Positions 27,138 to 62,650 of a DNA stretch of 64,000 nt are shown here, piece after piece (within the stretch, counting starts at the first letter, position 1; the number at the start of each line of letters is the position of its first letter). The notes under the pieces were generated by a model. The model was not told where the DNA came from and did no database searches. It was given only the letters and a program-made list of their open reading frames with translations. The position numbers and the translations under genes are program-made. Source of the stretch: Polyangium sp. 15x6 (lineage in GTDB: Bacteria; Myxococcota_A; Polyangia; Polyangiales; Polyangiaceae). The stretch is taken from the NCBI RefSeq assembly GCF_029960785.1, contig NZ_JASBQE010000041.1, forward strand, positions 1-64,000, in the 5' to 3' direction.

Positions 27138-29186
27138 TCAGGCAACCTCGGACGCGAGCGCGACGCCCCAGCGCGGCAGCGTCACGGTGAACGTCGAGCC
27201 CTCGCCGGGCTGGCTCTTCGCCTCGATCCTCCCGCCGTGCGCCTCCACGATCTGCCGCGCGATGAAGAGGCCGAGCCCGAGCCCTCCGTAGTGCTTGAGC
27301 GAGACGGCGCGCTCGAACCGCTCGAAGATCCGCGCGCACGCCTCGGGCGCGATCCCCATCCCGTGATCCGTGACGGAGATCCGCGCCGCGTCGCCGTCGT
27401 CCGCGATCGTGATCTCGATGGGCCGGCCGCTCCCGTACTTCACCGCGTTCTCGAGCAGATTCGAGAGGACCTGATCGAGGCGCGACGGATCCCAGCGGCC
27501 GACGAGCGACGTACACGAACGCAGCTCGATCTTGGTGCCCGTTTCGCTCGCCTCCGCGGCGAAGCGCTCGGTCACGTCGCGGGCGAGCGCGCAGAGGTCC
27601 ACGGTTTCAGGCTCGATCGCGAGCTGACCAGCCGTGATGCGTGTGACGTCGAGCAGGCTCTCCACGAGCCGCGTGAGCCGGAAGATCTGCCGCGAGCAGC
27701 GCTCGACGCGCCCCGTGAGTTGCTCGTTCAGGAGCCCGGCGCGCTTCAACGTTCGTTCGAGCGCTTCGAGCTGGAGCTGCAGCGGCGTGAGCGGGGTCCG
27801 AAGCTCGTGCGAGGCGATCATGAAGAACTCGTCGCGCGCGCGGATCGCCTCCTGCGCCTCGCGGTAGAGGCGGGCGTTGTCGAGCGCGATGCCGAACCTG
27901 CGCCCGAGCTCCTGGGCCACGGCGAGGTCCGCCGGCGTATACCGACCTCGCGGCGCGCGACGCACGAGCTCGACCACGCCGAGCCTGCGCCCGCGTAGCT
28001 CGATCGGGACGCAGATGTACGAGATCGGCCCGAGCGAGCGCAAAAGCTCGGGGCTCGCCCCGAGCACGCGCGCCATGCAAGGGAGGCTCTCGATCTCCTC
28101 GTGGAGGACCTTGCCGCCGCAGCGGAACGTGTAGTCGGCCCCCTCGCGGCGCCCGATCGCCCGCGCGAGCTCCTTCGTGAGCTCTTCGTGCCCGGTCCCG
28201 TTCGCGGCAGCGCAGACGACGAGGGACCCCTGCTCGTTCGCGAGGTCCACCAAGCAGAGATCGCCGAGCAGCGGGATCGCGCGCTCCGCCGCCTTCTGCA
28301 GCGTGCCTTCGGTCTCGAGCGAGCTCGTGAGCAGGAGCGTGGTCTCGTCGAGGAACGCCTGGATCTCCTCGGCGCGCTTCTGCTCGGTGAGGTCTCGCAT
28401 CACGGTGGCGAAGCCCCGCAGCTCGCCGTGCTCGTCGTGCACGGCCGAGAGCCTTAGCTCTGCGCGGAGCTCGGAGCCGTCCTTGCGCACGAGAAAGCCT
28501 TCGCCGAGGAAGTGACCGTCGCGCTTGGACGCGGCGAGCGCCTCCGCCGGCGCGCCCTGCTCGACGTCGCCCTTCGTGTAGAACGCCGACACGTGCGTGC
28601 CGAGGATCGTGCTCGGCTCGTAGCCCATGATCCGCGTCGCGCCGGCGTTCCAGCTCGCGACGCGCCCGTCGGGGTCGAGCATGAAGATCGCGTAGTCCTT
28701 CACGGACTCGACGAGCAGCCGGAAGCGCTTCTCGGCCTCCTCGGAGGCGCGCCGCCGCGCTTCCTCCTCGGCCAGCATCACCAGCCGCGCGTGGAGAAGC
28801 CGATCGGTCTCGTGCTTGTAGAGCGCGATCTCGATCGCGCCGCGCAGCTCGCGCTCGTTGAAGGGTTTGACCAGGTACCCGAAGGGGCTCGTCGTCTTCG
28901 CGCGGACGATCGTCTCCTCGTCGGCGTAGGCCGTGAGGTAGACGATCGGGATGTCGAGCTCCGCGCGGATTCGCTCGGCGGCCTGGATCCCGTCCATCGG
29001 CCCTTCGAGGCGGATGTCCATCAGGACGAGATCGGGTCTCCGCGCGAGCACTTTTTCGATCGCCTGCTCACCGGACGCAGCCGTGCCCGAGACCGCGTAT
29101 CCCAGGGATCGCAGCGTGTTTTCGAGGTCCGCGGCCACGATCCGCTGGTCCTCGACGATGAAGATCGTTCGCTTCGCGTCGCTCAT
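27138..29186 (-). CDS. receiver-PAS-GAF hybrid histidine kinase
   Basis: 682 aa. ATG 29186 overlaps the previous stop (ATGA). Order: REC (res 1-125, [18 protein letters not shown], phosphoacceptor in [10 protein letters not shown]), PAS (~155-275, [20 protein letters not shown]), GAF (~290-430), HisKA ([20 protein letters not shown], His ~455) and HATPase ([24 protein letters not shown]). No transmembrane segment, so it is cytoplasmic. The N-terminal receiver is likely to accept phosphate from the coupled kinase upstream. Its stop lies 4 bp from envC, convergent. Confidence 0.92.
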
Positions 29187-30637
29187 GCTTGCGTCGGGGT
29201 CAGGGGGAAACGCACCACGAACTTCGTGCCGGCGCCTCGCTGGAGCTCGATCGTCCCGTGGATCTGCTCGGCCAGGATGCTCACGAGCTTGAGGCCCAGC
29301 GTGCCCGCGTCGCGGAAGTCGACGTCGGGCGGAAAGCCGATCCCATCGTCCTCGACCTCGAGGATCACCTCGTCGCCGCGTCGCTTCAGCCCAACCCGCA
29401 CCGTTCCATTCCGGCCGTCCGGGAACGCGTGCTTGACCGCGTTCGACACGAGCTCGTTCACCACGAGCCCGCACGTGATCGCCGCGTCGACGCCGAGCGG
29501 CACGCCCTCGGCGTCGAGGGCGAGCGCGACGTGATCGGGGCGTACGCCGTACGTGTAGAGCAAGGCCGTCGCGAGGCTCCGCAGGTACTCGGCGATCTCG
29601 ACGCGCGCGAGGTCCTTCGACTGGTAGAGCTTCTCGTGAAAGAGCGCGATCGATCGGACGCGCGTCTGGCTCTCCTGAAAGAGCTGGAGCGCATGCGGGT
29701 CCGTGATCTGCCCCATCTGCAGGTTGAGCATGCTGGAGACGATCTGGAGGTTGTTCTTGACCCGATGGTGGATCTCCTTGAGCAAGACCTCCTTCTCCTG
29801 GAGCGAGGCGCGGAGCTTCTTCTCGACCAGCTTGCGCTCGGTGATGTCGCGGATCGCGGCCGCGACGAGCAGGCCCTCCTCCGTTTCGATGGGGCTCAAG
29901 CTGATCTCGACGGGGAACTCGCTGCCGTGCTTGCGACAGCCGTAGAGCTCGAGGCCGGAGCCCATCGGACGCACGCGCGGATCGGAGAAGAAGCTCGCGC
30001 GGTGCTGGACGTGCCGTTCGTGGAAGCGCTCGGGGACGAGGACCTCGATGGGCTTGCCGAGGAGCTCGGCGCGCGGGAAGCCGAAGACGCGTTCGGTCTG
30101 CGAGTTGCAAAGGAGGATCTTGCCCGCAGCGTTGACGATGACGATCGCGTCGGGCGCGGCTTCGAGGAAGCTCCGGAACTTCGCCTGCACGCGGTTGCGT
30201 TCGGTGACGTCGCGGATCGCCGCGGTGACGAGTATCTGGTCGCGCGTGCGGATCGGCGAGAGGCTGATCTCGACGGGGAACTCGGTGCCATCCTTGCGGC
30301 GGCCGTGCAGCTCGAGGCCCGCGCCCATCGGCCGCGGACGCGGCTCTTCGGCGTACAGCGTGCGGTGCTGGACGTGCTCGGTCCGCAGGCGCTCGGGCAC
30401 GAGGATGTCGATCGGCTGTCCGACGAGCTCGTCGCGCTCGTAGCCGAACATGCGTACGAGCTGGGCGTTGACGAGCATGATCGAGCCTGCGGCATCGACG
30501 ATCACCATGGCGTCGGGCGCGGCCTCGAGGAGCTCGCGAAAGCCCTCCTGCGTGGCCGTCCTCGCCTCGTCTTCGGGCAATGCGCTGCCCTTCGCGCTCG
30601 GATGCACGAGTTGCACGGTTCCTGGTCTCCCCACCAT
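29183..30637 (-). CDS. PAS-PAS sensor histidine kinase (HisKA_2/HWE-like)
   Basis: 484 aa from ATG 30637; the Shine-Dalgarno is weak and a longer frame exists upstream. Two PAS domains are near duplicates of each other ([19 protein letters not shown] and [19 protein letters not shown], each with [10 protein letters not shown]). The kinase has [20 protein letters not shown], the HisKA_2-type phospho-His box, and [18 protein letters not shown] for ATP binding. Soluble and cytoplasmic. It is translationally coupled to the downstream REC-hybrid kinase, which suggests a phosphorelay. Confidence 0.9.
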
Positions 30638-30900
30638 GAACAGAAGGCCGTCGGGCTCGACCAGGGCACATCCTAAACGGGCGAATACCGCAGGATCTCC
30701 AGCCCGGCCGTCGCTGGTGTTTCGGCGCCGTACTACTTTGGATCCATAGCGTGACGAGCGCCAAACGCTACCGCGCAGCACGGCGGAGCCTGTCGGATTG
30801 CGGCTCTGATGCGCGGGGCGCGTGGTGGTGGGGCGTGGATGGTCCGCCCTGCACGCTCATGCCTGTCGTGGGCAGATGCGAGCTTGTCGGACCTGCTCGG

Positions 30901-55453: not shown

Positions 55454-55756
55454 TCAACGCGGCAGCGGCGGCAGGTCGGGCGGGGGGGCCTCGCTGAGGA
55501 GCGCGTCGAGCTCGCCCTTTTGTTCGAGCGCCGCGATGTCCGTGAATCCGCCCACGGGGCGGTTGTTGATGAACACCTGCGGCACGGTTCGCTGGCGCGT
55601 GGCCTCCGAGAGCCAGCGGCGGAGGTCGGGACGCGTGTCGACGTCGATCTCTTCGAAGCGAATTTTCTTCCCGGAAAGCAAGGCTTTCGCGCGGTGGCAG
55701 TAGGGGCACCAGGGGGTCGTGTAGATGGCGACGTCGGCGGGCATGATGCTGGACAT
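55454..55756 (-). CDS. grxC: glutaredoxin (GrxC type)
   Basis: 100 aa from ATG 55756 (MSSIMPADVAIYTTPWCPYC); ATG 55744 is an alternative. Dithiol active site CPYC (C17, C20), cis-Pro loop TVPQVFI and glutathione-binding GGFTD. The C-terminus has a short Pro-rich extension. It reduces protein disulfides or glutathione mixed disulfides in the cytoplasm. Divergent from the kinase/nuclease module across a G-rich repeat array. Confidence 0.93.
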   Translation of the reverse strand: MSSIMPADVAIYTTPWCPYCHRAKALLSGKKIRFEEIDVDTRPDLRRWLSEATRQRTVPQVFINNRPVGGFTDIAALEQKGELDALLSEAPPPDLPPLPR

Positions 55757-56071
55757 TTCGGTTCTGCCAGCGGCGAACGCAAGGGGTGGATGCGTGCTTG
55801 GGAGGTTGCTGGAGGGACGGAGGGAGGGGGAGGAGGTTCGAGGTGTTGCTGGGGGGAGCGAGGGGGCGGGGGTGGGAGGGCTCGGGGCGTGGCTGGGGGA
55901 AGTGAAGGAGGGAGGGGGAGGCGCGGCGGCATGTTGGTACATCGAGCGGCGCGGGCAGGCAGAGGCTTCGCTCGTGTTGCTTCACCAAGCGAGGTCGAGA
56001 GCATCTCCCGCGGGGAGCTTGTCTACGATGCGGGCCCTCGGTACGTGTGGGCTGGGAAGTGAGAAGGCATC
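55757..56071. other. divergent spacer between grxC and the kinase/nuclease module
   Basis: 315 bp. About half is the G-rich tandem array (55781-55925). The kinase Shine-Dalgarno GAGAAGG is at ~56061-56067. No -10/-35 pair can be called with confidence. Confidence 0.5.
55781..55925 (+). repeat. G-rich degenerate tandem repeats, ~40-44-bp period (array 2)
   Basis: Units start near 55781, 55821, 55861 and 55905 (last partial). Each opens with AAGGGG or AGGG(A/G)G and carries TTGCTGG or TGGCTGG near the end. 55851-55880 has four G-runs separated by very short loops, a strong G-quadruplex candidate. The plan matches array 1 at 30901-31120. Confidence 0.68.
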
Positions 56072-58141
56072 ATGGGGCCGACGGAAGACGAGCTGAGCGC
56101 GGAAGGAGATCCGCAGGAGAAGGTTGCGCAGATCTTCCGCGCCGCCGGCTTCGAGGTCGAGCGCCGCGTTGGAGCTGCGCCCGGCACGGTCGAGTGGTTC
56201 GCGGTGGCGTCCACGGGGTTTCCCCGCGTGCGCACCTGCTTTCGGGTCTTGCCGACGGTACCCGAGGATATCGCGCGCGAGCTTTCGGAGCTCTCGGCGA
56301 TCTGCCAGAACACCGGCTCCGACCGCGCAATCGGGATCGTGATGGAGGGTGAGCTGCCCGAGGGCTACGAGCCGGATCTCGGCACGGCAAGCTCCTCGGC
56401 CCTGTTTACCTTCCGACACTGGGCGCTGGAAGTCTGGGGTATCGCGGATAAGGCACGAGAGCTTGTCCGTAACACCGAGCCCGCTGCGGCAGATCTTTAT
56501 CTACCCCGAAGAGCGCAACTCGCATCCGGCGAAGAGGTGGACGCAGACGCATTCATCGAACGCTGGGCGGACGATCCGAACGGCCCCACGCTCGTGCTTT
56601 TGGGCCCCGGGAAGTGGACGACGGCCTCCCATGCTGTATGGCGGGCAGCTCGCCGTTTTGCAGGGAAACCTAACTCGGCAACGCCTCTCTTACGGCCGTC
56701 CGGTAACCGACTGGAACACCGAACCGACTTCGCAGTGGTCGTGGACGATGCTGGTCGTTACGACCAACCTCCTCTTACGCGCAGGCTCCTGGTCTGGAGC
56801 TTCGGGAGCAACACGAACCTCCTTGCGGCGCCGAGCGTCATCACCTTGCAGTTGCTCGCGCCCCAAATCGACGAGATCGAGCGATGGTTCGAGCGGCATC
56901 TCGAGCGTCGTCCCTCCTTTGAGCGCCTCATGGCGGCGCGAAAAGCGAACAAGGATTTCGCAGCGCTCTCGAACGTCCTCGACAACCTTGTGCCCATCCT
57001 CGAGGGTATCGATTCGTTGTCAGCATCCTATACAGACACCGAGCCCGTGGAGGCGTGGATCTCGGCTGTCGTGGGCGCTTATGGCAGGAACGTGGAGGCA
57101 ACCCTCCGGCGATCGATGCAAGCGCAACCAAAGGACATTTCGGCACTGGAGGATGCCGCTCTGGAGCAGTTTGCGCTCGGGAAAGTGACTTCGATGGTCA
57201 CCTTCCTGAGTGACTGGAGTGACTACGAGTGGTGGCACAGTGATGACGACGGTGACGTGTTCACGAACGAGCTCGTCATGCACTACTTCCTCGCGCGAAA
57301 AATCATCCGCGAGATCCGCGCCGGTCACGACGACGTGCTTCTTCGCTACCAGTTTCCGCGCGAGGTCTTCTTCTTCCTGACGGTGATCGCCCCCGACGTC
57401 GCCGCACGTCTTACGGACAGCGCCGTCACCGGCATGGAGCAGCGGATCCGCGAAGAGGCCGAGCGCATCGCGCAGCTCGGGTTCGCGCATCGGCTCAATC
57501 GTCCGGTGGGCGCGATGCGCCAGCACCTCGGCGAGATCCGCGACGCGCTCGACAAGGAGCAACGAGCATCCCTTGCGCGTCCGTTCGCGCGACTCGAAGA
57601 AGAGATCGACTACATCGAGCGGCTCACCGAGAAGACGCGCATCTGGGAGACAGGGCCCACAGGCCCCAAGTCGCACGTCGCGCTCCGGCCCCTCGTCGAG
57701 GACGAGCTTGCTCCACTCATGCAACGACATCCCGATGTGATCACGGCCGTCGAGGTTCCGAGCGGGCTTTATGTCGAGGCGATCTCAGACGCACTCCATG
57801 AAACGCTGCACTGCCTCCTCGAAAACGCTTTTCACGCAGTCGTGTCCAATACGCGGTCGATCGGTCGAAGGATCGTGGTCTCGGGCAGCCGCACGGGCGA
57901 TGTCGTCCGTCTCGACATCCGCGACAGCGGCGACGGCGTGAATCCAGGCGACCGCGATCGCATCTTCGAACCGTTCAACACGAACAAGACGGGCGGCGCC
58001 GGCAAGCCTCGCGGCACGGGCCTCGGTCTTGCGATCGCCAAGCGCTTCGTGGAAAGGATGGGAGGCCGGATCGGCCTCGATCCCGCACAGGAAGAGACCT
58101 GCTTCTTCGTCGAGCTGGTCGCGGGCAAGGAGGACGGATGA
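56072..58141 (+). CDS. cytoplasmic histidine kinase with unusual N-terminal sensor
   Basis: 689 aa, ATG after GAGAAGG. No membrane helix. Res ~15-95 resemble a degenerate restriction-endonuclease-like fold (QIFRAAGFEVERRVG). Res ~150-310 recall a STAND/NACHT NTPase in layout, but the P-loop is broken (LLGPGKWTT, res 176-184, Trp after the Lys). Res ~310-450 are helical. The kinase core follows: phospho-His box FAHRLNRPVGAM (H473), N-box LLENAFHAV (N585), DSGDG (D618) and GTGLGLAIAKRFVERMGG. It is coupled by ATGA overlap to the receiver-nuclease gene, its obvious phosphotransfer partner. Sensor assignments are inference; the kinase core is clear. Confidence 0.85.
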   Translation: MGPTEDELSAEGDPQEKVAQIFRAAGFEVERRVGAAPGTVEWFAVASTGFPRVRTCFRVLPTVPEDIARELSELSAICQNTGSDRAIGIVMEGELPEGYEPDLGTASSSALFTFRHWALEVWGIADKARELVRNTEPAAADLYLPRRAQLASGEEVDADAFIERWADDPNGPTLVLLGPGKWTTASHAVWRAARRFAGKPNSATPLLRPSGNRLEHRTDFAVVVDDAGRYDQPPLTRRLLVWSFGSNTNLLAAPSVITLQLLAPQIDEIERWFERHLERRPSFERLMAARKANKDFAALSNVLDNLVPILEGIDSLSASYTDTEPVEAWISAVVGAYGRNVEATLRRSMQAQPKDISALEDAALEQFALGKVTSMVTFLSDWSDYEWWHSDDDGDVFTNELVMHYFLARKIIREIRAGHDDVLLRYQFPREVFFFLTVIAPDVAARLTDSAVTGMEQRIREEAERIAQLGFAHRLNRPVGAMRQHLGEIRDALDKEQRASLARPFARLEEEIDYIERLTEKTRIWETGPTGPKSHVALRPLVEDELAPLMQRHPDVITAVEVPSGLYVEAISDALHETLHCLLENAFHAVVSNTRSIGRRIVVSGSRTGDVVRLDIRDSGDGVNPGDRDRIFEPFNTNKTGGAGKPRGTGLGLAIAKRFVERMGGRIGLDPAQEETCFFVELVAGKEDG

Positions 58142-59112
58142 GTGACGCTGCGAAGCGGATCCTGCTCGTCGAGGACGACGATCAGAACGCGGAAGACTAC
58201 ACGGACTGGCTGAAGACCGCCGGCTACGAGGTCGAGCGCGCGCGCGCCGCCGAGGACGGCCTCACGCTCGCCGACTCGTTCCGCCCGGACGTCGTCGTCC
58301 TCGATCTCCAGATCCCGTCTCAGCCGGGGCGAACCGACGAGGACACGCGGTTCGGGCTCGCCACGCTCGAAGGGCTCATCCGCGCCGATCCGTTCCGGCC
58401 AGTCGTGATCGCCACCGCGCACAAGAACAACCCCGAGCTCATGCGCGAGATCATGCAGCGTACGCGGGGCGGCCAGTTTCTCTTCAAGAGCGAGCGCGAT
58501 CTGAGGGGCGCTTTGCTCCGCTCGGTCGTGCTCGCACTCGCGAGCCCTGTCTACGTCGGGAGCCGCGCGGTTCGTGCCTTCGAGGCCCTCGTCGAAAAGA
58601 ACGAGAAGGAAGACAAGTACCGCGACTTCCTGAAGAAGAACTGGCGCATCCTGCTCGGCCCGAAATATCGCGACTGCCGCTCCCCACACGAGGTCGGTCG
58701 CGGCGCCGAGGTGGATCTGCTCTTCGTCCGGCACGACGGGTTTCCGGACCTCTGGGAGCTGAAGCGTCCCGATCAGCCGGTCTTCAAGGAGTACAACAAG
58801 GGCCGACTCCACCAGAGCGAGGAGTGCTCTCGCGCGGTCGGTCAGGTCATCGAGTACCTCGATCTGGCCGAGAAGCAGCCTACGGGTCCGAACAGCTACG
58901 AGGCGCAGCGCGGGATCCGTGTCGACCTGAACCGACCGCGCGGATACGTGGTCATCGGCCGTCGCAAGGATGACCGCGAGCGCGATCGGTTGGCCCTCGA
59001 GAACAGCTTCCTCGCTGGGATCACGATCCTCACGTACGACGACCTCATCGAGGGCGCGCGGGAAGTTCTCACTTTCCTGCGCGACTACCGTAACGGGGAC
59101 GCTGGCACCTGA
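58138..59112 (+). CDS. response regulator with Shedu (DUF4263)-type nuclease output
   Basis: 324 aa. The receiver domain (res 1-135) is complete: acidic pocket E12 D13 D14, phosphoacceptor D56 (VVVLDLQIP), T93 and K117. After a helical linker (res ~137-160), res ~160-315 form a PD-(D/E)XK-like domain: FLKKNWRILLGPKYRD, GRGAEVDLLFV (D193), WELKRP (E207, K209) and SRAVGQVIEYLD (Q236). This matches the SduA/DUF4263 pattern of Shedu anti-phage nucleases. Phosphorylation by the upstream kinase would gate nucleic-acid cleavage. There is no DNA-binding output domain, so it is not a transcription factor. Confidence 0.82.
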   Translation: MSDAAKRILLVEDDDQNAEDYTDWLKTAGYEVERARAAEDGLTLADSFRPDVVVLDLQIPSQPGRTDEDTRFGLATLEGLIRADPFRPVVIATAHKNNPELMREIMQRTRGGQFLFKSERDLRGALLRSVVLALASPVYVGSRAVRAFEALVEKNEKEDKYRDFLKKNWRILLGPKYRDCRSPHEVGRGAEVDLLFVRHDGFPDLWELKRPDQPVFKEYNKGRLHQSEECSRAVGQVIEYLDLAEKQPTGPNSYEAQRGIRVDLNRPRGYVVIGRRKDDRERDRLALENSFLAGITILTYDDLIEGAREVLTFLRDYRNGDAGT

Positions 59113-59179
59113 CGACACCGAGCGCGCGGGGCGAAATTCGCTCCTCGTGGCCGCCAGGAGTCCATTACCCTTCGGCGCC

Positions 59180-59965
59180 ATGCCGAGCGAACTCGAGAAC
59201 AACGCCCCCGAGCCCTTCGAGACCACCGACGCGCAAGCCGCGTTCGATCACTTCGTGCCGCTCGTCGCGTCGATCCCCGCGGAGGAGGTCGAGGTGTGTA
59301 CGGCCGATCCGGAGATCGTCCGGATCAACGCGCGTCGCGGCGTGGACGCGATCCGGCCTCACCTCGTGCGGATCGAGAAGGCGCTTCCGCTCGTCTCGAT
59401 CGCTGGGCTTCTGGAGATTCCATCGCTCGCCCTCGCGCTCGCCTTCGCGGCGGATCGGGTGATCGTGCCTGCGAGCCCGCAGGAGATCCGCGCTCGGCAG
59501 GCGAGCCTCCGGCCCGCCCGAAAGCTCACCTTGCTCCAGCTCGAAATCCTCGCCGAGCTCGGCCTCGTGCCGGCGGAGCAGGTGCGCAAGATCCGCTCGG
59601 ACAAGGGCCCGGTCGACGAGGCGCGCGACGCGGTCGCGATCGTCGCGCTCTTCCGCGAGCACGCAGTGGCGCTCGCGAACAAGCATCCCTTTGACGAGGC
59701 GTACCTGCAGAAGCTGTCCGATGACGGGAACTGGCTGCTCGCCGAGCTCTTGCCGAAGGGCGCGAAGCCGGAGAAGTCGGAGCGCGCCGCGGACGCAGTG
59801 CTCCGCGATCGTCTCTGGACCGAGCTCAACCGCCGTTACGACGAGCTCTACAAGGCCGGCGTCGAGGTCTGGGGACGGCGGAAGGTGGACGAGCACCTGC
59901 CTTCCCTGCACGCCAGGCAGACGCAGCCTGCTCCCGCGCCCACGAACGCGCCTGCGGGCGCTTGA
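59180..59965 (+). CDS. protein of unknown function (261 aa)
   Basis: Starts at ATG 59180 (MPSELENNAPEPFETTDAQA), 67 bp after the nuclease gene; only a distant AGGAG is present. Largely alpha-helical, soluble, no signal peptide. Recurring Leu/Ala-rich helices (LPLVSIAGLLEIPSLALALA, KLTLLQLEILAELGLV) and WTELNRRYDELYKAGVEVWG near the C-terminus, then an Ala/Pro tail. No family is recognised. Its high-GC style resembles the host chromosome, so it probably marks the right edge of the accessory module. Confidence 0.68.
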   Translation: MPSELENNAPEPFETTDAQAAFDHFVPLVASIPAEEVEVCTADPEIVRINARRGVDAIRPHLVRIEKALPLVSIAGLLEIPSLALALAFAADRVIVPASPQEIRARQASLRPARKLTLLQLEILAELGLVPAEQVRKIRSDKGPVDEARDAVAIVALFREHAVALANKHPFDEAYLQKLSDDGNWLLAELLPKGAKPEKSERAADAVLRDRLWTELNRRYDELYKAGVEVWGRRKVDEHLPSLHARQTQPAPAPTNAPAGA

Positions 59966-60016
59966 GCGAAAGCCTCGCACCGTCTACTCGTCTCCAATCA
60001 GGAGTAGGATCCCGCC

Positions 60017-62650
60017 ATGGCCGACACCGAGGGCACAATCCACCTCGAACGCTTCACGAACGACGCCCGGCAGATCGTCGCGGGCGCGCAAGCGCTCGCC
60101 GACGACCGGAAGCATGCCGAGGTCTCGCCTTTGCACCTGCTCGTGCGCTTGCTCGAGCGGGATCGCGGCGTCCTCGAGGTCTTCCGGCGCGCCGGCGCCG
60201 ACCCGAACGAGACGATGAACCTCGCGGAGGCGGCCCTGCGGCGTCAGTCGAAATCGACGGGCGGCGTCGCGTACGTGGATGCTCGGCTGCTCGATCTGCT
60301 CGGGCGGGCCGAGCGCGAGGCGACGCGGGACAAGTCCCCGAACGTGGGCATCGAACACCTCCTGCACGCGCTGGCGCAGGAGATCCGCGGGCCGGCGGGG
60401 GAGATTCTCTCGTCGTTCAGCATCGGTCCGGGCGCGTTCCGTCCGCACCTCGGCGCGCTCGCGGAGGGGGAAGCGAAGGCACCGGCACCGCGGGATTCGG
60501 CCGCGGCGATCGTCACGAACGCGGCCGGCAGCGCCGAAGCGAGCGGCTACACGCGCGACCTCGTCGCCGACGCGCGCAAGGACCTGTTCGATCCGGTGAT
60601 CGGCCGCGACGGCGAGGCGCGGCGGCTCCTGCAGATCCTCGAGCGCCGGTTCAAGAACCATCCGCTCGTCGTGGGCGAGCCGGGCGTCGGCAAGTCCGCG
60701 CTGATCCGCGGGCTCGCCGATCGCATCGCGCGCGGCGACGTGCCGAGCAACCTCGCCGGCGCGCGCCTCTACGAGCTCGACACGGGCGCGCTCGTCGCGG
60801 GCGCCAAGCTCCGCGGCGAGATCGAGCAACGCCTCAAGGCCCTCATCGACAAGCTCCGCAGCGTTCAGGACGCCGAGACGATCCTCGTCGTCGAGGACAT
60901 CGACTCGCTCTTCGGCCAGGGCGTGCAGGGCTCGGGCGTCGGCGATCTCTTGAAGCCGCTGCTCGCGCGGAGCGAGATCCGTATCCTCGCGACGACCACG
61001 CCCGAGGGCATTCGCAAGCTGAACGAGCGGGATGCTTCGATCCTGCGGCGCTTCGCCGTGGTGAACATGGATCCGCCGTCGATCGATCAGGCGACCGAGA
61101 TCCTGCGCGGCGTCGCCACGAAGTACGAGGCGCACCACCGCGTGCGCATCGGCGAGAGCGCGATCCTCTCGGCCGTGAGCCTCGCCAAGCGGTACCTCTC
61201 CGATCGCGCGCTACCGGACACCGCGGTCGATCTCCTCGACGAGACGAGCGCGCGCAAGCGCGTCGAGGTCGACGGCGTGCCCGCGGAGGTCGACGCGCTC
61301 AGCCGCCGCGTGGACGCGCTCAAGGCGCAGATCGCGGCGCTCGCGGACGACGAGGATCGGCTGAGCGTGCAGGCGCGGCAGCGGCTGGAGAAGGAGCTCG
61401 CCGAGGTCGAGCCGCGCGCGAAGGAGCTGCGCACGAACATCGCGGCGCGGCGCGGCGTCGTCGCGGCAGTGCAGTCGATCCGCAAGGAGCTCGCGGCGGC
61501 GAACGAGGCGCTCGCGACCGCGCAGCGCGAGAAGAACTACGCGCGGATCGGCGAGCTCGAGCACGTGACCTTGCCCGAGATCCGCCGCCGCCTGGAGACG
61601 GCCGAGCAGGCCGCGAAGCGCGAGGGCGCCGAGGCCGGCTCGAACATGGTCACGGAGAACGACGTGGCCGGCACGCTCGCCGAGTGGACGGGCATCCCGG
61701 TCGCGAAGATGCTCGAAGGCGAGTCGGAGAAGCTCCTCAAGATGGAAGAGCGCCTCGCCCGCCGCGTGGTCGGCCAGGACGAGGCCGTGCGCGCGATCGC
61801 CCGCGCCGTGCGTCGCGGCCGCGTGGGCCTGCGTGATCCGGGCAAGCCCATCGGCTCGTTCCTCTTCCTCGGCCCGAGCGGCGTCGGCAAGACCGAGCTC
61901 GCCAAGGCCCTCGCCGAGTTCCTGTTCGACGACGAGCAGGCGCTCACGCGGCTCGACATGAGCGAGTTCATGGAGCGGCACATGGCGCAGCGCCTCATCG
62001 GCGCGCCGCCCGGCTACGCCGACAGCGAGCAAGGCGGCTTCTTGACCGAGGCGGCGCGCCGCAGGCCCTACAGCGTCCTGCTCTTCGACGAGGTCGAGAA
62101 GGCGCACGCGGACGTGTTCAACCTGCTGCTCCAGATCCTCGACGACGGCCGCTTGACCGACGGTCGCGGCAGGACCGCGGACTTTTCCAACACGGTCGTG
62201 ATCATGACCTCGAACATCGGTTCGAAGCGGATCCTGGAGACGGACGTGAAGCTCTTCGGCACCGAGGATGGGCGCGACGCGATCCGCGACGTGCTCTTCG
62301 AGGAGCTCAAGGCCTTCTTCCGGCCGGAGTTCTTGAACCGGATCGATGACATCGTCGTGTTCAAGGCCCTCAGCAAGCAGGACCTGCGCGGGGTCGTGGA
62401 CATCCAGCTCCGGCGCCTCGAGCGGCTCCTCGCGGACCGCGAGATCAAGGTGCAGCTCGACGACGCGGCGAAGGACCTGCTCGTCGACATCGGCTACGAG
62501 CCCTCGCTCGGCGCGCGTCCGCTCAAGCGCGCCATCCTGAAAGAGCTGCAAAACCCGCTCGCCGAGGCGATCCTCGCGGGCGGCTACGGCCCCGGACAGA
62601 TCGTGCACGTCCGCGCCGCCGACGGCTCGTTCACGTTCACCAAGGCCTGA
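60017..62650 (+). CDS. ClpB-type AAA+ ATPase, divergent
   Basis: 877 aa, ClpB architecture: Clp N-domain (res ~8-150), NBD1 with VVGEPGVGKS (G220-S227) and VVEDIDSLFG, a coiled-coil M domain (res ~415-535, DEDRLSVQARQRLEKELAEV), NBD2 with LGPSGVGKTELAKAL and LLFDEVEKAH, and a C-terminal lid. Differences from housekeeping ClpB: pore loop 1 reads AGAKLRGEIE with Leu265 for the usual Tyr; pore loop 2 reads GYADSEQGG rather than GYVGYEEGG; Walker B1 is VVEDIDS rather than FIDELH. Probably a specialised unfoldase or disaggregase paralogue; it could also be ClpV-like. Confidence 0.85.
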   Translation: MADTEGTIHLERFTNDARQIVAGAQALADDRKHAEVSPLHLLVRLLERDRGVLEVFRRAGADPNETMNLAEAALRRQSKSTGGVAYVDARLLDLLGRAEREATRDKSPNVGIEHLLHALAQEIRGPAGEILSSFSIGPGAFRPHLGALAEGEAKAPAPRDSAAAIVTNAAGSAEASGYTRDLVADARKDLFDPVIGRDGEARRLLQILERRFKNHPLVVGEPGVGKSALIRGLADRIARGDVPSNLAGARLYELDTGALVAGAKLRGEIEQRLKALIDKLRSVQDAETILVVEDIDSLFGQGVQGSGVGDLLKPLLARSEIRILATTTPEGIRKLNERDASILRRFAVVNMDPPSIDQATEILRGVATKYEAHHRVRIGESAILSAVSLAKRYLSDRALPDTAVDLLDETSARKRVEVDGVPAEVDALSRRVDALKAQIAALADDEDRLSVQARQRLEKELAEVEPRAKELRTNIAARRGVVAAVQSIRKELAAANEALATAQREKNYARIGELEHVTLPEIRRRLETAEQAAKREGAEAGSNMVTENDVAGTLAEWTGIPVAKMLEGESEKLLKMEERLARRVVGQDEAVRAIARAVRRGRVGLRDPGKPIGSFLFLGPSGVGKTELAKALAEFLFDDEQALTRLDMSEFMERHMAQRLIGAPPGYADSEQGGFLTEAARRRPYSVLLFDEVEKAHADVFNLLLQILDDGRLTDGRGRTADFSNTVVIMTSNIGSKRILETDVKLFGTEDGRDAIRDVLFEELKAFFRPEFLNRIDDIVVFKALSKQDLRGVVDIQLRRLERLLADREIKVQLDDAAKDLLVDIGYEPSLGARPLKRAILKELQNPLAEAILAGGYGPGQIVHVRAADGSFTFTKA

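What the first reader, a model, noticed from the sequence alone, without database searches (positions are those of the whole stretch)
56072..59112. Two-component system with a Shedu-type nuclease as the response-regulator output
Seen: a soluble histidine kinase (H473, N585, DSGDG, GTGLGLAI) overlaps by ATGA a protein made of a full receiver (D56, T93, K117) fused to a domain with D193, ELK 207-209 and Q236. Known: D...ExK plus a downstream Q in this spacing matches DUF4263/SduA of Shedu defence nucleases; Shedu is normally stand-alone and response regulators usually drive transcription. Inference: phosphorelay directly switches a defence nuclease. This is the best candidate in the window for an undescribed system.
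Basis: partly seen in the sequence, partly recalled or inferred. Interest (0 to 1): 0.92.

Follow-up and report, generated by a model that had tools for sequence, protein, structure and literature searches.

The report
Kinase-controlled Shedu-type nuclease in myxobacteria
A myxobacterium carries a two-gene cassette in which a sensor kinase sits beside a phosphate-switchable receiver fused to an anti-phage type DNA-cutting enzyme, which suggests that a classic bacterial signalling circuit may arm an immune nuclease directly.

Summary
Residues 156-304 of the 324-aa protein match Pfam SduA_C (E 2.7e-26), behind a receiver domain. The upstream 689-aa protein has a histidine-kinase core.

In Myxococcota I found 11 such loci in 10 genomes. 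A kinase of this family lies directly upstream in 11 of 11. The phospho-acceptor and nuclease residues checked are kept in 11 of 11 receiver-SduA proteins. Of 11 SduA_C places in 230 class genomes, 6 have both receiver and this kinase and 5 have neither.

The cassette is an insertion absent from 3 of 6 Polyangium genomes, with lowered G+C. Its sensor half is far more diverged than the rest, also at synonymous sites, which fits an exchanged recognition module.

Two things temper novelty. PADLOC already holds a full-length receiver-SduA profile under Shedu. Detocs is a described defensive two-component system, though with another effector and a buffer gene, for which I found no counterpart. I rate it a new variant of a known kind. 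Anti-phage function, phosphotransfer and nuclease activity are inferred, not shown.

The parts
55746..60013 (.). Inserted cassette between the glutaredoxin gene and the Clp-ATPase gene; approximate ends
   Evidence: In G197 and G214 homology stops at 55745 and resumes at 60014, with 78 bases between; in G178 it stops at 55785 and resumes at 60015, with 508 bases between. G+C 0.654 against 0.70 in the left flank and the Clp gene.
56072..58141 (+). Histidine kinase, 689 aa
   Evidence: HATPase_c E 4e-17; residues 456-685 align to HK853 (6rgy_B), Z 20.7, rmsd 4.8, 224 residues
56093..56455 (+). Kinase residues 8-128: putative Mrr/PD-(D/E)XK-like input domain without a conserved catalytic lysine
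   Evidence: Predicted order helix, three strands, helix, strand at 14-92; hhalign to a Mrr_cat alignment score 27.8, prob 40.6, 0 of 100 column shuffles reach it
56456..57421 (+). Kinase residues 129-450: strongly diverged middle region, possibly a degenerate STAND/NACHT-like module
   Evidence: Residues 146-450 are 56-60% identical to sister alleles where the kinase core has 88-89%; weak NACHT similarity, prob 1.4, but 0 of 60 shuffles reach the score
57422..58138 (+). Kinase residues 451-689: phosphoacceptor helix (H473, bases 57488-57490) and ATP-binding domain
   Evidence: H473 and N585 in 10 of 10 readable kinases
58138..58141 (+). ATGA overlap of the two genes (translational coupling likely)
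   Evidence: the same 4-base overlap in 10 of 11 loci
58138..59112 (+). Receiver-SduA fusion, 324 aa
   Evidence: Response_reg and SduA_C; PADLOC PDLC00405 SduA over residues 4-322, E 3.3e-164
58138..58545 (+). Receiver domain, residues 1-136; phosphoacceptor D56 at 58303-58305
   Evidence: Response_reg E 4.4e-11; model residues 5-141 align to the VicR receiver, Z 19.5, rmsd 1.5, 121 residues; E12, D13, D56, T93, K117 in 11 of 11
58585..59109 (+). SduA (DUF4263) nuclease domain, residues 150-324; D193 58714-58716, E207 58756-58758, K209 58762-58764, Q236 58843-58845
   Evidence: SduA_C residues 156-304 E 2.7e-26; weak but in-register match to Shedu SduA 8ti8, E 0.013; D193, E207, K209, Q236 in 11 of 11
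59180..59965 (+). Accessory gene of unknown function inside the insert (261 aa), present in this genome but not behind the cassette in G212 or G187
   Evidence: No hit in Pfam, NCBIfam or PADLOC; homology to G212 and G187 is interrupted at about 59115-60015
55454..55942 (-). Flanking glutaredoxin gene (left border; the ORF as listed probably starts too early)
   Evidence: Glutaredoxin E 1.2e-22
60017..62650 (+). Flanking Clp-type AAA+ ATPase gene (right border)
   Evidence: AAA_2, ClpB_D2-small, Clp_N; found in 6 of 6 Polyangium genomes, 93-98% identical in the five others

Best explanation
A two-gene, two-component effector cassette, most likely anti-phage or anti-plasmid. SHOWN (sequence, families, genomes): a soluble-looking histidine kinase with a variable N-terminal sensor is fixed next to a receiver fused to an intact-looking Shedu nuclease domain; the pair is present or absent as a unit at one chromosomal site in Polyangium, and its sensor half differs sharply between alleles. 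INFERRED: the sensor (a Mrr-like domain without catalytic residues plus a degenerate STAND-like region) recognises an invader's DNA or protein; the kinase then autophosphorylates on H473 from ATP and passes the phosphate to D56 of the receiver; this changes the receiver's packing or dimerisation and releases the SduA active site (D193/E207/K209/Q236), which cuts DNA. Without the signal the receiver keeps the nuclease off. This replaces the built-in N-terminal sensors of other Shedu proteins by a sensor on a separate protein.
For: SduA_C E 2.7e-26 and receiver E 4.4e-11 in one ORF; full-length PADLOC SduA model. Kinase directly upstream in 11 of 11 loci in 10 genomes (7 of the 11 kinases were in the profile used, 4 were not); in one (G533) the kinase is broken over two frames. 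ATGA overlap in 10 of 11. E12, D13, D56, T93, K117, D193, E207, K209, Q236 in 11 of 11; H473 and N585 in 10 of 10 readable kinases. SduA_C rings at 11 places in 10 of 230 class genomes: in the stretches around them, 6 of 6 with the receiver also have this kinase, and 5 of 5 others have neither. The sensor profile rang at 6 places in 5 of 230 genomes, all beside receiver-SduA. Empty sites in 3 of 6 Polyangium. Sensor residues 1-450 only 56-75% identical with dS 0.62-1.02, against 88-89% for the kinase core (dS 0.33-0.37), 93-98% for receiver and nuclease (dS 0.08-0.40) and 97% (dS 0.19) for the flanking Clp gene. Third-position G+C 0.74 in the sensor against 0.94 in Clp. In Polyangium fumosum a HEC-01-like AAA + DUF4276 pair lies directly behind the cassette, and in G168 a GmrSD_N gene lies about 1.7 kb downstream.
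Against: No experiment. The H-box is unusual: H473-R-L-N-R477, position +1 is never acidic (R, I, Q or L) and +4 is Arg in 10 of 10; that a +1 acid and a +4 Thr/Asn serve kinase and phosphatase in HisKA kinases is recalled, so autokinase activity is less certain. D618 of the ATP lid region is Asn in 1 of 10. The nuclease part of the model is low confidence, so the fold rests on HMMs. A candidate defence neighbour was seen at 2 of 11 loci, and only one to three neighbours at 5 of 11 loci were scanned. No full-length homologue in phages, viral contigs or plasmids. Pairwise dN/dS is below 1 everywhere (at most 0.37 per block, 0.60 in one 50-residue slice), so there is no positive-selection signal. 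Sensor exchange rests on three Polyangium alleles; over 9 diverse kinases the sensor's identities do track the nuclease's (Spearman 0.65-0.69), and the receiver's only loosely (0.45).
Confidence: 0.6

Rival explanations
1. It is a member of Detocs (or of its nuclease-effector relatives): the same kind of defensive two-component system with a nuclease instead of the ATP-cleaving PNP effector.
For: Detocs is a described defence system made of histidine kinase DtcA, phosphate buffer DtcB and response regulator DtcC, the best-known form with a PNP effector. I recall nuclease-bearing Detocs subtypes in DefenseFinder lists; a search for four such names found no paper.
Against: Two genes only: no second receiver around any of 11 loci by a profile that does detect one unrelated receiver elsewhere in the window. 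No DtcA sequence was at hand, so homology of the kinases is untested.
Confidence: 0.2
2. A stress- or development-linked nuclease: the kinase senses a cellular state (DNA damage, starvation), and the nuclease cuts the cell's own DNA in programmed lysis; not immunity.
For: Found so far only in Myxococcota, the only phylum whose whole genomes were searched; many of these have lytic development (recalled). Flanking genes are ordinary chromosomal genes.
Against: Patchy: 3 of 6 Polyangium genomes lack it; found in 6 of 240, 3 of 282 and 8 of 183 genomes. The sensor varies between alleles. A developmental function would predict fixation and a stable sensor.
Confidence: 0.12
3. The receiver is only a dimerisation or docking module and is not switched by this kinase; the nuclease is constitutive or DNA-end-activated as in other Shedu proteins, and the kinase has another partner.
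For: Unusual H-box; receivers that act without phosphorylation exist (recalled); receiver identities track those of the nuclease only loosely (Spearman 0.45).
Against: The phosphorylation residues of the receiver are invariant in 11 of 11, the kinase is adjacent in 11 of 11, and kinase-core identities track those of the nuclease (Spearman 0.75 over 36 pairs).
Confidence: 0.1

Closest known systems
Shedu (SduA, DUF4263/PF14082)
   Same: Nuclease domain with D, ExK and Q; PADLOC places the whole protein under SduA. [quoted passage not shown]
   Different: The N-terminal domain is a phosphorylatable receiver, and a gene for a sensor kinase accompanies it in 11 of 11 loci. Whether Gu et al. 2025 (Mol Cell) lists receiver-type Shedu could not be checked: the paper is not held.
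Detocs (defensive two-component system, DtcABC)
   Same: Histidine kinase plus response regulator as a phage defence system (passages in PMC11728103 and PMC11249213).
   Different: Three genes with the buffer DtcB and, in the best-described form, an ATP-cleaving PNP effector; here two genes, a Shedu nuclease, no second receiver nearby.
VcSduA / GHKL-SduA (Shedu type I-D)
   Same: Also combines a GHKL ATPase with an SduA nuclease; one such protein was met in the class (L064, G029: HATPase_c_3 E 2.7e-26, SduA_C 26.7 bits, just under the cut-off of 27).
   Different: There the GHKL domain is fused in cis; here kinase and nuclease are separate proteins linked by a receiver.
PorX/PorY
   Same: A receiver fused to an enzyme domain (PorX, receiver plus PglZ-type phosphodiesterase; passage in PMC12839542); PorX is also the top Foldseek hit of the model by E-value, at TM 0.34 and rmsd 18.5, so probably through the receiver only.
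   Different: PglZ domain, type 9 secretion signalling; not a Shedu nuclease.

Membership tests
Shedu / SduA_C (PF14082) | Match to the family profile above the curated cut-off | tested here: met
   93.1 bits against 27, residues 156-304, profile 2-159 of 159
Shedu / SduA_C (PF14082) | Active-site residues D, ExK, Q | tested here: met
   D193, E207, K209, Q236 in 11 of 11; the same letters stand at these places in SduA 8ti8 (E 0.013). A second deposited SduA sequence (8ti9) has Ala at the E207 position.
Shedu / SduA_C (PF14082) | PD-(D/E)XK fold of the nuclease domain | tested here: inconclusive
   Model has pLDDT under 50 at residues 178-268; the listed matches span mainly the receiver
Shedu / SduA_C (PF14082) | Nuclease activity and anti-phage protection | not testable with these tools
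   needs experiment
Two-component system | Kinase core with phospho-acceptor His in a helical dimerisation domain and an ATP-binding domain | tested here: met
   HATPase_c E 4e-17; residues 456-685 to HK853 Z 20.7; H473 in 10 of 10. No Pfam HisKA hit; H-box +1 not acidic, +4 Arg.
Two-component system | Receiver with acidic pair, Asp, Thr/Ser, Lys | tested here: met
   E12, D13, D56, T93, K117 in 11 of 11
Two-component system | Phosphotransfer from this kinase to this receiver | not testable with these tools
   needs experiment
Detocs | Three genes including the buffer DtcB (a receiver protein, recalled) | tested here: not met
   No second receiver in open stretches of 60 aa or more around 11 of 11 loci (6-19 kb each, and the window's 64 kb), apart from one hybrid kinase at 27141-30767; the profile came from 7 receivers of this family, so very different receivers could be missed
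Detocs | PNP effector on the response regulator (best-described form) | tested here: not met
   Effector is SduA_C
Detocs | Kinase homologous to DtcA | not tested
   No DtcA sequence was fetched

The most novel reading that the evidence does not exclude
A two-component immune system whose recognition module is exchangeable: a soluble kinase carrying a dead Mrr-like domain and a degenerate STAND-like region is swapped between strains, while the transmitter, receiver and Shedu nuclease stay constant, and phosphorylation of the receiver arms the nuclease in trans. It would be Shedu with its sensor moved to a separate phospho-signalling protein, perhaps with a non-canonical phospho-acceptor box in place of the usual kinase/phosphatase residues.
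Probability: 0.4. Interest if true: 0.78.

Novelty: new variant of a known kind. Interest (0 to 1): 0.62.

Why it matters
If true, it shows that a Shedu nuclease can be placed under a phosphorelay, so that recognition and cutting are done by different proteins that can evolve apart. That makes questions about Shedu regulation directly testable: D56A and phosphomimetic changes would give defined off and on states without knowing the trigger. It would also widen the idea, known to me from Detocs, that two-component signalling can serve as immune wiring. The allelic sensors offer natural pairs for mapping what the kinase recognises.

Tried and rejected
Kinase model: mean pLDDT 67, pTM 0.33; the VIA rows span 456-686, so the sensor's fold was barely tested.

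Sensor in family libraries: no Pfam hit outside the ATPase domain in 7 kinases beyond DUF7531 (one member, E 0.022), none for the Sorangium sensor alone, no credible PDB sequence match for the sensor profile (best E 0.087). The profile comparison to Mrr_cat is suggestive; it used 16 of the 20 loci that one search returned (of 32 places). SduA against Mrr (prob 0.3) and sensor against SduA (prob 1.1) showed nothing. The NACHT comparison used only 3 NACHT sequences. A full P-loop (GPPGSGKQ) is seen only in the Sorangium copy G531 among the 8 sensors aligned (by eye).

Spread: plasmids gave 8 records, none covering 80% of the query; phages none; viral contigs 35 pattern matches, none confirmed. 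The single genome-contig scan used two narrow patterns and gave 5 loci. So absence elsewhere is not shown. In some searches only 4 to 12 candidates per genome were scored after the tool's first look, so a genome without a match may still hold one; nearly all or all candidates were scored.

Papers: searches were searches of one library; I saw listings, some of them capped (20 of 1,109 papers, 15 of 475), and opened only four papers. No title or abstract start there described receiver-SduA; most listed papers were not opened. Gu et al. 2025, its preprint and Rousset et al. 2023 are not held.

Rows dropped: G533 was left out of the kinase residue counts because its kinase frame is broken (10 of 11 used); G062, with a short kinase ORF, was also left out of the identity statistics (9 kinases, 36 pairs). 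The script missed one of 11 receiver-SduA genes (second copy in G212); its overlap was read. The small stretches used reach about 1.0-1.5 kb to each side of the SduA_C match, so a kinase further away from the 5 other SduA genes would not be seen there.

Full report
What is there. The window carries two overlapping genes: 56072-58141 (689 aa) and 58138-59112 (324 aa), sharing ATGA. Pfam finds a receiver at residues 8-106 (E 4.4e-11) and SduA_C at 156-304 (E 2.7e-26) in the second protein, and only HATPase_c (E 4e-17) in the first. PADLOC's model PDLC00405, named SduA, matches the second protein from residue 4 to 322 of 324, E 3.3e-164, so a receiver-SduA protein family is already catalogued as Shedu; the kinase has no PADLOC hit. 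The genome has one SduA_C match.

Structure evidence. The kinase core, residues 456-685, aligns with HK853 (Z 20.7, rmsd 4.8, 224 residues), and the receiver with VicR (Z 19.5, rmsd 1.5, 121 residues). The nuclease part of the model is not confident (pLDDT under 50 at 178-268). Sequence comparison instead puts D193, E207-x-K209 and Q236 in register with the same letters of solved Shedu SduA 8ti8, though weakly (E 0.013); in a second deposited SduA sequence, 8ti9, Ala stands at the E207 position.

Relatives. A protein search of 240 class genomes found receiver-SduA in 6 genomes at 7 places; profile searches found it in 3 of 282 phylum genomes, 3 of 6 Polyangium genomes and 8 of 183 order genomes, and the PADLOC profile in 2 of 282 phylum genomes. 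These sets overlap, and in most of them the tool scored only some candidates per genome. Together they give 11 loci in 10 genomes: G000 (window), G187, G212 (two), G238, G168, G062, G409, G531, G533, G535. A profile of the kinase core, built from 7 of these loci, finds a kinase directly upstream in 11 of 11; in G533 it is spread over two frames, and in G062 its ORF is short (428 aa from the first listed start). The genes overlap by ATGA in 10 of 11; in G168 three bases lie between them if the ATG is the start.

Conservation. E12, D13, D56, T93, K117, D193, E207, K209 and Q236 are identical in 11 of 11. H473, N585, G620, G622, G648, G650 and G652 are identical in 10 of 10 readable kinases; D618 is Asn and E584 Gln in one each. 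The residue after H473 is R, I, Q or L, never acidic, and the residue at +4 is Arg in 10 of 10. In HisKA kinases these places are usually acidic and Thr/Asn and serve kinase and phosphatase activity (recalled); other kinase groups differ (recalled). The chemistry may therefore be unusual, and this counts against an easy reading.

Pairing test. SduA_C rang at 11 places in 10 of 230 class genomes. In the stretches around these places, a receiver profile and a kinase-core profile both ring at 6 of 11 and neither at the other 5 (most of the 6 were in the profiles). Of those 5, Pfam finds an SduA_N domain in one (L059), a GHKL ATPase in one (L064), nothing but SduA_C above cut-off in two (L061, L062), and one gave no readable ORF over the match (L063). 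Conversely the sensor profile (kinase residues 1-452) rang at 6 places in 5 of 230 genomes, every one a receiver-SduA locus (at most 7 candidates per genome were scored). So the sensor was not seen without the nuclease, nor the receiver-nuclease without the kinase.

Presence, absence and composition. In Polyangium genomes G197, G214 and G178 the glutaredoxin gene lies next to the Clp-ATPase gene with no cassette; the Clp gene is found in 6 of 6 genomes, 93-98% identical in the five other than the window's own. In the window the insert is about 4.3 kb. G+C is 0.654 in the insert and about 0.70 in the left flank and Clp; third-position G+C is 0.74 for the sensor, 0.79 for the kinase core, 0.86 for receiver-SduA, 0.88 for the accessory gene and 0.94 for Clp. 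Behind the cassette the content differs: an unknown 261-aa gene in the window, an AAA_21 ATPase plus DUF4276 pair that matches PADLOC HEC-01A/B in P. fumosum, and only about 0.5 kb in G187. In G168 a GmrSD_N gene lies nearby and two SEC-C genes flank the pair. Neighbours of the other loci were not scanned, except single genes at G238 (a WYL regulator, among others) and G212's second copy.

Sensor divergence. Between the window and G212 or G187, kinase residues 1-145, 146-300 and 301-450 are 74-75, 56-57 and 59-60% identical with dS 0.62-1.02. The kinase core is 88-89% (dS 0.33-0.37), the receiver 93-98% (dS 0.08-0.36), the nuclease 94-97% (dS 0.31-0.40) and Clp 97% (dS 0.19). G212 and G187 share nearly the same sensor allele (98-99%). 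Raised dS in the sensor shows that it has a different history from its surroundings, as expected from exchange between alleles; the rest of the cassette is also somewhat above Clp. dN/dS is at most 0.37 for these blocks and at most 0.60 in single 50-residue slices, so no positive selection is claimed. Over 9 kinases, mean identities are 26% for sensor residues 129-400, 40% for 1-128, 45% for the kinase core, 57% for the receiver and 62% for the nuclease. At that depth the sensor's identities still track the nuclease's (Spearman 0.65-0.69; kinase core 0.75; receiver 0.45), so exchange is indicated only among the three Polyangium alleles.

What the sensor may be. Residues 14-92 are predicted as helix, three strands, helix, strand, the order of a PD-(D/E)XK core (recalled). 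hhalign with an alignment of 16 Mrr_cat stretches gives probability 40.6 and score 27.8; 0 of 100 column-shuffled versions reach it (best 18.0), and the reversed alignment scores 9.5. The catalytic lysine is not conserved (by eye). Residues 124-452 resemble NACHT weakly (prob 1.4, score 23.9, best of 60 shuffles 19.8), and one relative keeps a P-loop. These are leads, not assignments.

Mechanism. Shown: a fixed gene pair, intact signalling and nuclease residues, presence or absence at one site, a variable sensor. Inferred: invader sensing by the N-terminus, autophosphorylation of H473, transfer to D56, release of the nuclease, DNA cleavage that protects or kills the cell. I give this 0.6 as a defence system. 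Rivals are Detocs membership, a developmental or stress nuclease, and an unswitched receiver.

Known relatives. [quoted passage not shown] passages). Detocs is a three-gene defensive two-component system with DtcA kinase, DtcB buffer and DtcC regulator (PMC11728103, passages), the best-described form using a PNP effector (PMC11249213, passages). Two of the Detocs features are not met here: no second receiver near any of 11 loci, and no PNP effector. The passages that I saw of the BREX survey PMC12839542 mention Shedu's variable sensors and PorX only in general terms. Library searches for the combination listed no paper whose title or abstract start describes it (listings only), and the main Shedu and Detocs papers are not held, so I do not claim that receiver-Shedu is unpublished.

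Verdict. Observation confirmed; interpretation partly supported; new variant of a known kind; interest 0.62.

Noticed in passing
window 27141-30767 (-): An ORF that matches both a receiver profile and a histidine-kinase-core profile, probably a hybrid kinase unrelated to this cassette.
   Followed up: no
window 59180-59965 (+): A 261-aa gene without family match, behind the cassette in this genome but not in G212 or G187; it could be a third component or a passenger.
   Followed up: partly
L009 8788-10041 and 10017-10706: In Polyangium fumosum, an AAA_21 ATPase plus DUF4276 pair (PADLOC HEC-01A/B) sits directly behind the cassette: a possible stacking spot for defence genes.
   Followed up: partly
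L012 6108-7604 and 10781-12220; 4429-6057: In G168 two similar SEC-C genes flank the pair on both sides, which looks like an insertion between duplicated copies, and a GmrSD_N (DUF262) gene lies nearby.
   Followed up: no
L014 8169-11242 (-): Polyangium fumosum holds a second, diverged copy of the kinase plus receiver-SduA pair (54% identical receiver-SduA) at another locus.
   Followed up: partly
L016 and L048: In Sorangium cellulosum So ceGT47 the kinase is interrupted over two frames while receiver-SduA stays open: decay or a sequencing error.
   Followed up: no
L064 1282-3060 (-): A GHKL-ATPase (HATPase_c_3) fused to a weakly scoring SduA_C in another genome of the class (G029), like the VcSduA type.
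   Followed up: partly
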